Assembly: GCA_011374625.1 (NCBI GenBank)
Contig: DRPN01000181.1
Coordinates: 1 to 45,011, forward strand
Length of the DNA stretch: 45,011 nucleotides
From: Bacteroidota bacterium
GTDB lineage: Bacteria; Bacteroidota; Bacteroidia; Bacteroidales; VadinHA17
Direction: 5' to 3'
Part shown: in pieces, positions 13,984 through 34,058 of the stretch
Position numbering within the stretch: the stretch's first letter is position 1
How the letters are laid out: every line of letters begins with the position of its first letter
Position numbers and translations under genes: made by a program
The notes under the pieces: generated by a model
What the model was told of the DNA's origin: nothing
Database searches by the model: none
The model's input: the letters and a program-made list of their open reading frames with translations, nothing else

Positions 13984-16656
13984 TTATTTTTTTTGTGTCG
14001 TATCCGGTTCTTCTTCCCAAATCACCTTAAACTTCTTTTTAGGTATTATTGTATCCCGTACTTTCAGCGGTGTTTTTTTCTGTTCTTCTTCCGGCCATTC
14101 TATACGGAATTTCTTCTTCCCGTACATACCGTCCGATTCCGGCAAATAGTTGGAAGTATCTTTTTGGAACAAACCGGTCTCCTCCCGCAGAATCATTTTC
14201 AACCGGCTTTTTTCCTCCCTGAGCTCCTTAGATATTTTCTCTTTCACCTTTTTCTTGTCATAATACACTCCGGATTCCTTACCGTTGCCTGTATACCTAA
14301 GAAACAGAGTGGTTTTTCCCTCATCAGGGTCTTCAATCACATTTCCGAATTCCGGATTGTTTTGATTTCCTTTTCTCGCTTTACGCGCTAAATAATCAGA
14401 TAATAATATACCAATACGGTAGTCAAAATCCCCCTCGAAATGATGAACCCCTGAAACAGTAATGTTCAGAGCTGAGGATTTTACCTGCATATCCGGAATT
14501 ACAACCTGTTGATCATGAATAAATATTTCGTTCTTAAGCGTTGAAAACCGAATATTTTTCAATTCCGACAGCCTGATATATTTTGATAGTTTATACAAAG
14601 GTTCAAAACCAATCAATTCTCCCCGGGATATTTCCAGATAACTATCAGACAAAATACTTGGTTTAAACACTTTCCCGTTACTATCAAACCTGGCTTGAAA
14701 AGCAATGCTTCCGGAGACATAACCTTTCAGATTCTCTGCCCGAATAAATTCCTGATTAAAATTACGAAACGAATAAAACAACTTCTTTACATTAATATGC
14801 TCAGGTTCCAGATAAGTTTTTATCTGATCCGTCCCTTTTTCTTTCAGAGTTAACTCCATTTGTCCCGAACAACTTCCTTCCATGGCAGTAAATGTCACTT
14901 GTTTAAGCAATATTACAGGATCATCATAATTCAAAAATCCTTTAACATCACCGGCCTTAAAACCATTATAACGTAAAGTATCAACAAAAATGTTGCTTCT
15001 TATCAATGGGATCAAAGTTTTTCTCTCTGCTTTCCTGGGTTTATCTGAAACATCTCCGATTAATCTGAAAAAAGACAACATCTCTCCGATGTCCAGCTTT
15101 GTTCCTCTCAGATCAGTATAAAATACTGCCGGACCACTTCCCTCAAGATACTTCATCATATTCCTAACTCTCCCCCTTATCTGCCATGAATTTCCGGTCC
15201 AGATAACATTGTTCCCCCATAACGCAATATCCTGCCCGGGAATTAATTTTGTATCAAGGTTTGTAACATAAAGCATACTGTCATCAAATATTACGAGGTC
15301 CCTGAAACTTATTTGCCCGTTTACCCTCAGTTCTGATAATTTTTTGTTTGTGCCGGATTTAAACATCACGGAAGGAATCCCGACCTTTACTTTTCCGATT
15401 ATATTTCCGCTTTTAACGATCTTAGAAAAGTTTTCTCCGGTCCAGCCATACAAATCCTTTATCTTCATTTCACCATTCAAATAAATATTCATGGGCAAAA
15501 TCTTTTTATTCCTGATTTCCCAGAACATTTCCGTAGTAATCCCGGCATGGTTAAATCGTACTACGGATGGCAGAATATGAACCGAAACAAGGGATGATTT
15601 GCCTAAATGAAGAGTTATTTCTGCTTTCCATTTGTCTGCTTTTAATTCCTGGTTTTTTATAGCTGGAACAAAAACAAAATGATCCCCCGTTACCTGTATC
15701 ATTGTGTTTAAATGAAAAGGTCCGGATCCTTTCCCGGATAATTCTCCATCCACAGAAATATTACCTCTGATCCAACCGGTTTCAGAATGTATGATTTTTC
15801 TTTTTTTAAGATATTGTACAACTTCATCGGCTTTAATTTTCTTTGCATGCAGGTGTATGCTTATCCCTTTGCTTTTCAAATTATTCCCGATATCTCCTGT
15901 AAAATCAATGGGAAATCCTCCCATTACCACTCTGCCTTTGCTCAGATGCATGGTGTTTTTGCCCGTTTGAACATGTGCATTAAAGACAAACCCGTCAGGA
16001 AAATTATACGTAACCTGCTTTTCATTTTTTACAACCAATCCTGCATGTTTAATCTGCACATATCCGGCAGTTCCCGGCCACCATCCGCCATCCCATTGGG
16101 CTTTTCTGATCTTCCCTGTTATTCTAAAACCTGAACCCTCCTCTGCATAGGAATATTTCGTATTAACAATCCTGAACAAATGTATTTTAAGCGGATTTGA
16201 TTTCTTCCCGGTCTTTTTGGGACCTTTGTCTTTAAAAATATCCCAGTTTTTCTGCCCTTTTCTATTTTTTATCAGATGTATATCTCCCTCCGTTACAACT
16301 ATTCGTTTAATACTTAATTTTCTGAACAACAAGGCATCAACAATATTCATATCCAGTATTACTTCACCTGCCTTCAGGAAGGGTTTGTTCCCGTGTTCCT
16401 GTAACGGTAACGATCCGGAAATGGTAACCGATTGGAATGTGGCAGATAAATAGGGAAAGTGCTTTATCAATGAATACCGGATTTCCCCAACAGCTGCCTT
16501 AGTGTTCAACTGTTCGTTTAATTTTCCTATTATTACTTTTTGAATGTCTGATGAATATGCATGAAGTAAAATACTGACAATAATCAAGCCTGCCAGCACC
16601 ATACCCCCTATAATAAGAAAAACCCTGAAAATTCTTTTCATAACCCTTCGCATCAT
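13984..16656 (-). CDS. AsmA-like / DUF748-type inner-membrane protein
   Basis: N-terminal TM then KIIGKLNEQLNTKAAVGEIRYSLIKHFPYLSATFQSVTI; long beta-rich body; LKGYVSGSIAFQARFDSNGK AsmA C-terminal pattern. Confidence 0.8.
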   Translation of the reverse strand: MMRRVMKRIFRVFLIIGGMVLAGLIIVSILLHAYSSDIQKVIIGKLNEQLNTKAAVGEIRYSLIKHFPYLSATFQSVTISGSLPLQEHGNKPFLKAGEVILDMNIVDALLFRKLSIKRIVVTEGDIHLIKNRKGQKNWDIFKDKGPKKTGKKSNPLKIHLFRIVNTKYSYAEEGSGFRITGKIRKAQWDGGWWPGTAGYVQIKHAGLVVKNEKQVTYNFPDGFVFNAHVQTGKNTMHLSKGRVVMGGFPIDFTGDIGNNLKSKGISIHLHAKKIKADEVVQYLKKRKIIHSETGWIRGNISVDGELSGKGSGPFHLNTMIQVTGDHFVFVPAIKNQELKADKWKAEITLHLGKSSLVSVHILPSVVRFNHAGITTEMFWEIRNKKILPMNIYLNGEMKIKDLYGWTGENFSKIVKSGNIIGKVKVGIPSVMFKSGTNKKLSELRVNGQISFRDLVIFDDSMLYVTNLDTKLIPGQDIALWGNNVIWTGNSWQIRGRVRNMMKYLEGSGPAVFYTDLRGTKLDIGEMLSFFRLIGDVSDKPRKAERKTLIPLIRSNIFVDTLRYNGFKAGDVKGFLNYDDPVILLKQVTFTAMEGSCSGQMELTLKEKGTDQIKTYLEPEHINVKKLFYSFRNFNQEFIRAENLKGYVSGSIAFQARFDSNGKVFKPSILSDSYLEISRGELIGFEPLYKLSKYIRLSELKNIRFSTLKNEIFIHDQQVVIPDMQVKSSALNITVSGVHHFEGDFDYRIGILLSDYLARKARKGNQNNPEFGNVIEDPDEGKTTLFLRYTGNGKESGVYYDKKKVKEKISKELREEKSRLKMILREETGLFQKDTSNYLPESDGMYGKKKFRIEWPEEEQKKTPLKVRDTIIPKKKFKVIWEEEPDTTQKK

Positions 16657-17435: not shown

Positions 17436-19778
17436 TCATGAGCGTGTCACCTTAAATCCGATGATCAACATGTCATCCACCTGTTCTTGCACTCCCATCC
17501 ATTCCTCCATGGTTTGTTCAAGAATATCCTTTTGTTTTTTCAGGTCCTCTTTGCTGATCTTTAATAGCAACTCTTTCATCCTGGTATACTTAAATTTCTT
17601 TCCGTTCGGTCCGCCAAACTGGTCGGCATATCCATCCGAGAAAAGATAAATCACATCATTTTCTTCAAGCATTACTTCATGGTCGGCATACTGTGTCTTC
17701 GGATTCTCCAGGTATGATCCGATGGGAAATTTGTCTCCCTTGATTACAATCATCTCTTCATTACGGGCAATCCACAGTGGATTATAGGCACCTGAATAGT
17801 TCAATATGCCTTTTTCCATATTAATTCTGCAAAGGGCCAGGTCCATGCTGTCGCGCAAAGCTCTTTTCTGATACTCCTTAAACATCCTTTCACTGAATCC
17901 TTTATTCAATTCATCCATGATCTCATTGGGTTTGATCTCCGGATTTTCTTTCAGGATCATATTTAGCAGATTGTATCCCAGCAGTGACAAAAAAGCTCCC
18001 GGCACCCCGTGTCCGGTGGCATCCACCGCAGCCACATAAGCATACCTGCCCGATTTTCCTATCCAGTAAAAATCTCCGCTTACAATGTCCTTGGGCCGGA
18101 AAAAGATGAAAATATCTCGGAAAATCTCATGAACATACTTTTCATGCGGCATAAAGGCTCTCTGAATATACCGGGCATACCTGATGCTATCGGTAATTTC
18201 CTTGTTTTTCAATTCAATCTCTTCTTTCTGCCGCCTCAGTATCTCATTAGCTTTCTTTTTCTGTCTGTAATTTCGGAAGATCAGGACAGCAATCAATAAA
18301 ACGAAGACCAGACCTGCAAGGATCACATTACGTTGCAGGTTTTGTTTTTCTATCTCAAGATCCTTTCGGCGCAATTGCTCATCCTTAAGCAACAGTTCTT
18401 TTTCCTTCTGGCGGGTCTGATATTTCGTTTCCAACTCAGCAATCTGCTGATGTATCTGCACATTCATCAAAGTGTCCTTAATCTCCAAGTATTTGAAGAA
18501 ATAATCCAGTGCTTTCTTATAATCCTTTTGTTGCTGATATATTCTGGCGAGTCCCAAATAATCATTCTGGATGAGCCGCAGGATATTCAAATCCCGTGCT
18601 ATCACGAGACTTTTAAAGTAATTGCCTTCTGCCTTTTTCTCTTCTCCTTTTTTCCAATAAGTCTCTCCTATTCTTGAATAACAGGAAGCCATTCCTCTCA
18701 TATCTTCGGTTTGCCTGTATAAGGAAAGCGTTTTGTCAAAGAAACGTAAAGCCGAATCAAGCAGGTTTTGCTTGAAATAGAGTTCTCCCATATTCTCAAG
18801 GGTGGCCGCCACACCCGGGACATTGTTAAGTTCCTGTTCGATGAGCAGTGATCGCGAAAAGTTGGTATCTGCTGCCTCATACTTACCCTGAACAATAAAA
18901 ACATTTCCAAGTTCGCGTAATGTAGCAGCCAGGTGACTTTTGTCTCCCAGTTTCTCTTGTATTCTCAAAGCTTCAAGGTAATATTTTTCAGCCTGTGAGT
19001 AATTGTTCAGCGACTCATAAATTCCGGCTATATTATGATAGGCCCCGGCCATGCCCTGCAAATTGTTGAGATTACTCCACAACGTCGAAGCTTCCAGATA
19101 ATATTTCAAGGCCTCCTGGTAATCGCCCCAAATAGAAAAAATCTCCCCCAGATTGTTCAGCGTATTGGCCATCCATTTTTTGTCTCCCAGTTCTTTTTTC
19201 AGGGTATATGACTCTCTGTAATTCCTGATGGCTTCCGGATACTCTCCCCTGAATTTGTGGATCTCTCCTATGTTGTTGAGTGTATTGGCTATTCCCTGTT
19301 TATCCTCCAGGATTTTTTTCAGCTCAAGCGACTTATTATAATAATCAAGAGCTTTGCTATAATCCCCTTTGCTGCGACACAAAACACCCAGGTTATTCAG
19401 CGTATTGGCAATCCCCTGCTTATCCCCCAGCTCCTGATAAATTTTCAGGGAAGCAAAATATTGCTTCTGGGCATTCGCATAATCTCCAAGGAAAAAATAA
19501 GCTTTGGCAATGTTTTGCAGAGCCAGGGCTTCTTCTTCAGGTTTTTTCACGGATCGGGCCACCCGGGCAGCTTCTTTACCATAATCAATAGCCTTTTTGG
19601 GGTCTGTTGAAAGACTCAGGCGGGTCAATTGGTGCAATATCTCAAGTTTTTTTCCCTTCTTTGAAGCCTTCAGCAGGACCTTAAGACTGTCCGTCTGCAA
19701 TTGTCCCGTACCGGAAGGAGCAAATAGTAACACAGCCACACAGATGCTGATAATTCCTGTAATTTTTTTCATAGACAT
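17436..19778 (-). CDS. TPR-repeat protein with C-terminal SpoIIE/PP2C-type phosphatase
   Basis: Signal peptide, multiple TPRs (ANTLNNLGVLCRSKGDYSKALDYYNKSLEL...), coiled coil + TM, then DIVSGDFYWIG...VAAVDATGHGVPGAFLSLLG. Confidence 0.94.
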   Translation of the reverse strand: MSMKKITGIISICVAVLLFAPSGTGQLQTDSLKVLLKASKKGKKLEILHQLTRLSLSTDPKKAIDYGKEAARVARSVKKPEEEALALQNIAKAYFFLGDYANAQKQYFASLKIYQELGDKQGIANTLNNLGVLCRSKGDYSKALDYYNKSLELKKILEDKQGIANTLNNIGEIHKFRGEYPEAIRNYRESYTLKKELGDKKWMANTLNNLGEIFSIWGDYQEALKYYLEASTLWSNLNNLQGMAGAYHNIAGIYESLNNYSQAEKYYLEALRIQEKLGDKSHLAATLRELGNVFIVQGKYEAADTNFSRSLLIEQELNNVPGVAATLENMGELYFKQNLLDSALRFFDKTLSLYRQTEDMRGMASCYSRIGETYWKKGEEKKAEGNYFKSLVIARDLNILRLIQNDYLGLARIYQQQKDYKKALDYFFKYLEIKDTLMNVQIHQQIAELETKYQTRQKEKELLLKDEQLRRKDLEIEKQNLQRNVILAGLVFVLLIAVLIFRNYRQKKKANEILRRQKEEIELKNKEITDSIRYARYIQRAFMPHEKYVHEIFRDIFIFFRPKDIVSGDFYWIGKSGRYAYVAAVDATGHGVPGAFLSLLGYNLLNMILKENPEIKPNEIMDELNKGFSERMFKEYQKRALRDSMDLALCRINMEKGILNYSGAYNPLWIARNEEMIVIKGDKFPIGSYLENPKTQYADHEVMLEENDVIYLFSDGYADQFGGPNGKKFKYTRMKELLLKISKEDLKKQKDILEQTMEEWMGVQEQVDDMLIIGFKVTRS

Positions 19779-19837
19779 CCTTGCCTGATCCGGAGAACTT
19801 TCCCCATGGCTTAAAGATACGAAAAAAAAGAAAAGCT

Positions 19838-20020
19838 GTTAAACCCAGTTTGCGCAATAGAGATTTCGGAAAAATCTTCTATGCGCACAGGCCGTAAGCC
19901 GTCCCGGGTAAATCCCGACTTAGGAATTCACTGTTTTGGTGAAAAGCCAAAACAGTTGAAATCCTTTGTCGTTCCGCAATAGAAAGCATTTTGGGGTTTC
20001 TATTGGGGAATTTGAATTAA
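19838..20020. repeat. Composite palindromic repeat element (B-type followed by A-type)
   Basis: B-type GTTAAACCCAGTTTGCGCAATAGAG... hairpin 19851-19887; A-type hairpins 19931-19955 and 19974-20008. Homologous copies at 23184 and 33360. Confidence 0.8.
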
Positions 20021-20062
20021 AAAACAGCCTTTTTCTGATTCTGATATGTGTCCCTTTATGAT

Positions 20063-21145
20063 CTAAAAACCAATGCTAATAGTTTCAATGGAAGCAGGGG
20101 GCCAAGGGTTCACATCACTCATATCTATAAACGAGGAAGTAAACTTTGCCGGATCCGGGTTGTCCTTGTCGTTGGAAACAAACCCATTTCCATCAAAATA
20201 CGCTATACCTACAGCGTCACTCACATATGTATCCACAACTTCACCCGGCATATTAGGAAAGAGTGTCATGATCTGCCGTTTCAAGACCTTGTCCATGGAA
20301 TAATCTGACCATATTTTATCCACCGTATTGACTGTTAACACAGGCAACCCGCATAATGCCACCGCAATATTCTCCTTAACATTGTTTTTTGCCTTGAAGC
20401 TCCAGCTTCTTCCTCGTGTCTCCTCGGCAACACTTAGCACATAAGCATTAGGCATGTTAAAGTTTCCATACAGGAAAACCACATCCCCTTTCTGTCCGAA
20501 AAAGACTTTCATCCTTTTCACATATCTTGTGTTCGTTGAATCCAGATTTATCGCACTAACAGTCATGGTCCTGTCATATTTCGGGTCGTCTTCCCCGTAC
20601 TCTACCTTTATGAACGCTTCCCGTTGCTTGTCGGCTCTGTAGTTATAAGCCACCGGATGCAAAATGGCAATTACTTTCAAAGGAGACAGGTTCCACACCA
20701 TCAGAAAAGCATTCCCCATTTTGGCATCTGAGATCAATAATCCATAATCCCATGCCTCTTTCCGGTAAAGGTAATGATTCGTGAACACCATTGTTTTTTC
20801 CTGCTGATCATCAGGACTGATATAGGAAAATGACCCGGGCTTTGTAATAGCCTGAGATTTTACAAAATTTAGTGTATTCTGGATCATTCCTGCAGAACAA
20901 TCACTGATAAAAACCAAGGCACGCAAATGTCGATAAAGATCCTTTCCTGTAATTATATCGCCTGATAAGACCATGCTCTTTTTCTTATCCAGGTCAGGAA
21001 AACTAATAGCACTTGAAACATTCACTTTCACGTTATCCGGGAAAACCGCAGGTCCTTCTTTTTTCTTGCAGCCTCCCAGGCCTCCCAAGATAAATACAAA
21101 AAGAACTCCTGCAATTGCAATAAAACGTATTTTTTTCATCCTCAA
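20063..21145 (-). CDS. Hypothetical lipoprotein
   Basis: Signal peptide with lipobox-like GGLGGCKKK; no family recognised. Confidence 0.75.
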   Translation of the reverse strand: MRMKKIRFIAIAGVLFVFILGGLGGCKKKEGPAVFPDNVKVNVSSAISFPDLDKKKSMVLSGDIITGKDLYRHLRALVFISDCSAGMIQNTLNFVKSQAITKPGSFSYISPDDQQEKTMVFTNHYLYRKEAWDYGLLISDAKMGNAFLMVWNLSPLKVIAILHPVAYNYRADKQREAFIKVEYGEDDPKYDRTMTVSAINLDSTNTRYVKRMKVFFGQKGDVVFLYGNFNMPNAYVLSVAEETRGRSWSFKAKNNVKENIAVALCGLPVLTVNTVDKIWSDYSMDKVLKRQIMTLFPNMPGEVVDTYVSDAVGIAYFDGNGFVSNDKDNPDPAKFTSSFIDMSDVNPWPPASIETISIGF

Positions 21146-23083: not shown

Positions 23084-23111
23084 GGAATGTCAGGTAAGAA
23101 AGGATGAACTT

Positions 23112-23153
23112 TTTAAATACATATTTAAATAAATATTTAAATATGTATTTAAA
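23112..23153. repeat. Perfect AT-only-type 20-bp inverted repeat with 2-nt spacer
   Basis: TTTAAATACATATTTAAATA-aa-TATTTAAATATGTATTTAAA. Confidence 0.85.
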
Positions 23154-23183
23154 TATGTATATTATTAATGTCTTTTTCTGACC

Positions 23184-23245
23184 GTTAAACCCGGTTTGCG
23201 CAATAGAGCCATTTACAATAACTCTATTGCGCAATTGAGTTAAAC
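23184..23245. repeat. B-type palindromic repeat element
   Basis: TTGCGCAATAGAG (23196-23208) / CTCTATTGCGCAA (23222-23234) perfect 13-bp stem, bounded by direct GTTAAAC repeats; 24/25 match to 19838 copy over GTTAAACCC(A/G)GTTTGCGCAATAGAG. Confidence 0.8.
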
Positions 23246-33323: not shown

Positions 33324-33455
33324 GCGGATTTCGGGATAATAAATACACCAAATATTTATTCCAAATCCGCAATAGAAAACCCAAAATGTTTTCTATTGCG
33401 GAACGACAAAGTATTTCATCTGTTTTGGCTTTTCACCAAAACAATGAATAGTCCC
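33324..33455. repeat. A-type palindromic repeat element (inverted relative to 19.9 kb copy), three chained hairpins
   Basis: Hairpins 33324-33370, 33367-33401 (14-bp perfect stem) and 33421-33443; reverse complement matches 19909-20020. Confidence 0.8.
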
Positions 33456-34058
33456 CCGATTTAAGGTATCTCTTTTCCCTACTCCCTGGCTTTCCAGGAA
33501 CTGATTTCCCGGATTTCTTCCGGTATCTATGAAAATACTAAGACTAACTCCGGCCTTCTCCCTGCCTTCGGTCTCCCTTGGCGCAGGAAACCTCACTCAC
33601 TATTATACCTCCTTGCTCTTAACGCCTTCATTGGTAGAGATATAGACTATCGTCGACCCGGATCTTTTCTAAGGATGGTATCCGTATTTCCCCTCTGTCG
33701 TGTAGAGCCGGCAGGCTCTCACAGGCTCCCCGAAAATCCTCCTGATCATTCGCCTTGCTATAACACTCCGATCATTCCTTAGTATCCCGTCTCTTTCAAT
33801 ACTTCGGTGCTGTCCCTGTCAAACAGAATACAAAGACTATGGTATTATTATAATTTCCGAAGCTATCACACGGCTTTTGACCTCGCTGTTTAGGCGTCAT
33901 GCAGGCATCTCTTCCTACTGCAAAGCTCGCTTCCGGCTGGCGGCAAACCTTTACCGGACAGGATTTGTTACCTACAGGATTTCTTCAAAAAGTTTCAAAG
34001 AACTTAGGCTCCTTATCCTCTTTTTCAGGACTTAGCCTGTCGCAACGGGCTTGTTACT

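What the first reader, a model, noticed from the sequence alone, without database searches (positions are those of the whole stretch)
19909..20020. Two-hairpin 'A-type' palindromic repeat, second copy inverted at 33360-33455
The reverse complement of 33360-33455 aligns with 19909-20020 over about 100 bp: ATTCAyTGTTTTGGTGAAAAGCCAAAACAGwTGAAATmCTTTGTCGTTCCGCAATAGAAArCATTTTGGGkTTTCTATTGsGG. Both copies keep two hairpins (9/8-bp TGTTTTGG/CCAAAACA stem; 12-14-bp CCGCAATAGAAA stem). Where the two copies differ the stems are largely preserved, which suggests the structure matters. This looks like a REP/MITE-like or RNA-structured element I cannot name.
Basis: partly seen in the sequence, partly recalled or inferred. 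Interest (0 to 1): 0.72.

Follow-up and report, generated by a model that had tools for sequence, protein, structure and literature searches.

The report
Small jumping DNA with folded ends
The repeated two-hairpin sequence is part of a 173-base non-coding mobile element (a MITE) that carries the ends of an IS1380-family insertion sequence, spreads into short A/T-rich sites mostly between genes, and here has landed inside the transcription terminator of a neighbouring gene; it is a new example of a known kind of selfish DNA.

Summary
The whole element is window 19844-20016 (173 bp). It ends in terminal inverted repeats (consensus CCCRGATTGCGCAATAGA) and sits between two TTAAA duplications. The 33360-33449 copy is the 3' half only, fused to a truncated group II intron. 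A third, 50-bp copy at 23190-23239 also has exact TTAAA duplications. Related copies are dispersed in most genus mates. Over the catalogue, 41 of 85 long candidate end pairs have exact 5-bp flanking duplications against 5.6 expected (0 of 10,000 shuffles), consensus WTWAW. Three genus mates have the empty site at 19844: an intact intrinsic terminator whose loop is the target. A genus mate carries a 1,560-bp IS1380-family insertion sequence with the same ends (17/17 bases), and an order mate has one with the same ends and TTAAA duplications. So this is most likely a MITE moved in trans by an IS1380-family transposase. It folds into three main hairpins with compensatory changes across the family, although the two window copies alone do not show this. 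The own assembly holds no detectable IS1380 transposase. New member of a known kind.

The parts
19844..20016 (+). Full-length MITE (173 bp), subfamily A
   Evidence: Ends set by the alignment of copies with flanks and by identical TTAAA on both sides
19839..19843 (.). Left target-site duplication TTAAA
20017..20021 (.). Right target-site duplication TTAAA
19844..19861 (+). 5' terminal inverted repeat CCCAGTTTGCGCAATAGA
   Evidence: 0 mismatches to the end pattern
19999..20016 (-). 3' terminal inverted repeat, decayed (ends GAA instead of GGG)
19851..19887 (+). Hairpin 1, contains the 5' end repeat and an inverted inner copy of it
19916..19969 (+). Central hairpin (CGAC...GTCG); compensatory changes across the family
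19970..20010 (+). Hairpin 3, contains the 3' end repeat and an inverted inner copy of it; compensatory changes across the family
23190..23239 (+). Solo 50-bp mini-palindrome made of two facing ends, with TTAAA duplications at 23185-23189 and 23240-23244
   Evidence: matches hairpin 1 of subfamily C 40/40
33360..33449 (-). 3' half of a MITE copy; ATAAA at 33355-33359 is the likely right duplication; the left half is lost
33756..33967 (-). Group II intron remnant (RF02005, 74.4 bits) upstream of the truncated MITE copy; neighbouring DNA, not part of the element
19820..20034 (-). Intrinsic terminator of the gene at 20063-21145 (-), split in its loop by the MITE
   Evidence: Intact at the empty site in G002, G003 and G004

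Best explanation
The repeat is a non-autonomous DNA transposon (MITE) of an IS1380-family insertion sequence. Inferred mechanism: an IS1380-family DDE transposase made elsewhere binds the 18-bp ends (CCCRGATTGCGCAATAGA), mobilises the element and joins it to a 5-bp staggered break at a WTWAW site; gap repair leaves the 5-bp duplication. Shown here: the ends, the duplications, the empty sites, a matching autonomous insertion sequence in relatives, the number of copies, and stems kept paired through compensatory changes. Inferred: that IS1380 transposase is the enzyme, that it acted in trans, and that the inner inverted copies of the ends are extra binding or folding sites. The intergenic bias probably reflects A/T-rich targets plus selection against insertions in genes. 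At 19844 the insertion split a terminator and may let transcription run from the gene at 20063-21145 into the one at 17436-19778 (untested).
For: Dispersed copies in G000-G005 and one in G010. Facing terminal repeats with exact 5-bp duplications in 41 of 85 long candidates against 5.6 in shuffles, 0 of 10,000. Contiguous empty sites in G003 and G004 and across the junction in G002. End pattern 40 hits in G000 against 2 for the reversed control. G003 insertion sequence of 1,560 bp: transposase NF033539 IS1380 at 238.8 bits, cut-off 180; ends identical to subfamily B over 17 bases. Order mate L179: ends CCCAGATTACGCAATAGG / CCCAGATTCCGCAATAGA with TTAAA duplications; Aliarcobacter cibarius plasmid IS1380 element with ends of the same type and ATAAA duplications. 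The IS1380-family element IS1247 makes 5-bp direct repeats (PMC3281130).
Against: No IS1380 transposase was found in the own assembly or in the nearly complete G002. The MITE shares only the ends with the insertion sequence, so it is not a simple internal deletion of the one sampled. Movement itself was not observed. About half of the candidate pairs lack exact duplications; some are chance pairs and some copies have decayed ends.
Confidence: 0.93

Rival explanations
1. REP/REPIN repeat spread by a RAYT (Y1, TnpA-REP) transposase.
For: Paired palindromes in intergenic DNA; Y1_Tnp genes are present, 3 in G000; two Y1 loci have element ends near them.
Against: 10 of 12 Y1 loci have no convincing element end within the fetched flanks; 5-bp target duplications and CCC...GGG ends belong to DDE transposition; IS1380 elements carry the same ends.
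Confidence: 0.03
2. A conserved structured RNA or regulatory RNA whose copies are kept for a cellular function.
For: Strong folding and compensatory changes.
Against: No Rfam match; the site is empty in three relatives; insertions have duplications at unrelated sites with no common gene context; palindromic ends alone explain much of the pairing.
Confidence: 0.04
3. The element is a MITE that specifically targets intrinsic terminators.
For: The window copy lies in a terminator loop, and several others lie at the end of a T-tract.
Against: 12 of 56 insertions overlap a terminator-like site, against 92 of 535 control intergenic WTWAW sites (p = 0.46).
Confidence: 0.05

Closest known systems
IS1380-family insertion sequences (NCBIfam NF033539; e.g. 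IS1247, ISEcp1)
   Same: Terminal repeats of the same sequence type in the relatives fetched here, 5-bp duplications
   Different: The MITE has no transposase gene and shares only the terminal 17 bases with the G003 element
Bacterial MITEs with strong folding, such as Correia, RUP and BrickBuilt of Porphyromonas (reviewed in PMC10969869)
   Same: Short, non-coding, terminal inverted repeats, multi-copy, mostly intergenic
   Different: Different ends and target; the review does not mention IS1380; here each end lies in its own hairpin and a third covarying hairpin lies between them
REP/REPIN repeats with RAYT
   Same: Paired palindromes in intergenic DNA
   Different: Target duplications and DDE-type ends here; no consistent RAYT linkage

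Membership tests
MITE | Short and non-coding | tested here: met
   162-206 bp full copies, 173 bp in the window; no room for more than 57 codons
MITE | Terminal inverted repeats | tested here: met
MITE | Target-site duplications and empty sites | tested here: met
   41 of 85 exact against 5.6 shuffled; empty sites in three relatives
MITE | Many dispersed copies, mostly intergenic | tested here: met
   44 of 52 outside ORFs of 100 aa or more
MITE of IS1380 | Shares its ends with an autonomous IS1380-family element | tested here: met
   17/17 bases with the G003 element; same type in L179
MITE of IS1380 | Autonomous partner in the same genome | tested here: not met
   No PF13701 match in G000; the assembly is fragmented into 205 contigs
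MITE of IS1380 | Moved by the transposase in trans | not testable with these tools
   Needs a transposition assay
REP/REPIN | Linked RAYT gene | tested here: not met
   10 of 12 Y1 loci without convincing element ends
Rfam RNA family | Match above a family's gathering score at the element | tested here: not met
   Only the neighbouring group II intron reaches its cut-off

The most novel reading that the evidence does not exclude
The folded hairpins themselves are recognised: IS1380-family transposition in this lineage uses or tolerates ends extruded as hairpins, so that 50-bp mini-palindromes made only of two facing ends move on their own, and the central stem is selected as structure rather than as sequence.
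Probability: 0.12. Interest if true: 0.55.

Novelty: new member of a known kind. Interest (0 to 1): 0.33.

Why it matters
It gives exact ends and a partner enzyme family to a repeat that would otherwise be annotated as an unknown structured RNA, and it links MITEs to the IS1380 family, for which the searches made here found no described case (the library is not complete). With dozens of copies in three subfamilies it is a ready test set for whether end hairpins matter in DDE transposition. The window copy is a clean natural case of a terminator split by a MITE.

Tried and rejected
REP/RAYT origin. Terminator targeting as a rule (p = 0.46). Group II intron as carrier of the repeat: only one copy found touches an intron. 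Hairpin 1 covariation could not be counted on alignment A1 because its 3' arm is misaligned by about two columns between subfamilies.

Full report
What is there. The 19909-20020 stretch is part of a longer repeat. Searches of the own genome and of 59 relatives found dispersed copies in G000-G005 and one in G010 of the same family; G005 holds 40 matches or more. Aligning copies with their flanks shows where similarity starts and stops: CCC at the left, GGG at the right. For the window copy this gives 19844-20016, bounded by TTAAA on both sides.

The duplications. Pairing end-like 18-mers on all loci fetched gave 85 long candidates, some of them chance pairs. 41 had identical 5-mers outside the ends, against a mean of 5.6 when the right 5-mers were shuffled among copies, and none of 10,000 shuffles reached 41. 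The exact 5-mers are nearly all WTWAW (TTTAT, ATAAA, TTAAA, TTTAA, ATTAA, TTAAT, ATAAT, ATTAT). Among 17 short candidates 3 were exact (297 of 10,000 shuffles did as well). The window copy at 23190-23239 is a further exact one once its right end is set at GAG, one base from where the script put it. An internal deletion of a longer copy would also leave exact duplications, so the short copies need not have moved as such.

The empty site. The joined flanks of the window copy align without a break to G004 (82% over 1,187 bp) and to G003 (67%), and across the junction in G002, where the sequence reads GCTGTTAAATAAACAGC. In all three relatives this is an intrinsic terminator, a stem followed by a T-run, on the strand of the gene at 20063-21145. 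In the own genome the MITE sits in its loop. This is a local fact: over 56 insertions, terminators are not favoured over other intergenic WTWAW sites. Insertions lie mostly outside ORFs of 100 aa or more, 44 of 52, while 21% of WTWAW sites in the window are intergenic.

The partner. The end pattern, with up to two mismatches, occurs 40 times in G000 against 2 for its reversed control. In G003 two such ends face each other 1,560 bp apart around a 442-aa transposase, with flanking TTAAT and TTAAA. It passes the NCBIfam IS1380 model (238.8 bits, cut-off 180). Searching 295 genomes of the order with that protein found eight with strong relatives. Of the loci examined, L179 has ends CCCAGATTACGCAATAGG / CCCAGATTCCGCAATAGA with TTAAA duplications, and L180 and L181 have diverged ends of the same type. 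An annotated IS1380-family element on the Aliarcobacter cibarius plasmid NZ_CP043858.1 has ends CCCAAATTTTTCAATAGA / CCCGGATTTTGCAATAGG with ATAAA duplications. MITE and the G003 insertion sequence share the terminal 17 bases; no longer match was found among the top hits. A published IS1380-family element, IS1247, makes 5-bp direct repeats (PMC3281130).

Structure. The element folds into three main hairpins plus two small ones; RNA z is -6.9 and DNA z -8.0. On 29 aligned copies the central and 3' stems are 95.3% paired. 8 pairs change on both sides; 47 cells do, against 16.3 in shuffles, and slid registers give 2-13. Most of these changes separate two subfamilies (A in G000, G002 and G004; B in G001, G003 and G005), so they are few evolutionary events. 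A third subfamily, C, with 15 matches in G000 and 17 in G002, keeps the same layout with a different central stem. The terminal stems may be kept because both arms resemble transposase-binding ends. The central stem has no such explanation, and its cause is open.

The second copy. 33360-33449 holds only the 3' half. Nearly all full copies begin to match it at the same base, ATTCA. The DNA joined there belongs to the 5' part of a group II intron (RF02005), cut off soon after what looks like the start of its reading frame; the rest of the intron and the 5' half of the MITE are missing. A deletion joining the two is the simplest reading (inference).

Age. Within G005 copies are on average 95% identical, up to 99%. 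Within G000 the aligned copies average 71%, because two subfamilies are mixed. Recent movement is therefore likely in G005 and less clear in the own genome, where no IS1380 gene was found.

Verdict. An ordinary but well-resolved mobile element. The literature searches made here found no described IS1380-linked MITE, but the library is incomplete, so this is filed as a new member of a known kind.

Noticed in passing
window 33450-34042 (-): Truncated group II intron (RF02005, 74.4 bits over 33756-33967) directly after the SAHH-like gene, cut off early in its reading frame and fused to the half MITE; G000:C30:19658-19815 is 80% identical to its first 140 bases.
   Followed up: partly
window 23110-23165 and L008 downstream of its match: An A/T-rich palindromic run built of TTTAAATA-like units lies close to a mini-palindrome copy in both places.
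   Followed up: no
L067 (G004:C14) 848-2180: A Y1 transposase gene lies among several element ends, two of them in direct repeat about 850 bp apart.
   Followed up: partly
subfamily A copies of G002 (L029, L039, L043): These copies carry an extra 32-bp block (CTTTGCTCCGCTGAAGCTACGCGAAAGCGATG) between the small hairpins and the central hairpin.
   Followed up: no
L025, L030, L086 (G003, G005, G001): Subfamily B copies with a different extra block of about 34 bp (TTAACTTAGCGCAGCGATCTCATGAGCG-like) at a nearby position.
   Followed up: no
G002:C23 about 15742-15982 (L112): The same intergenic region in G002 holds about 190 bp of other extra DNA, G/C-rich and unlike the MITE, downstream of the intact terminator.
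   Followed up: no
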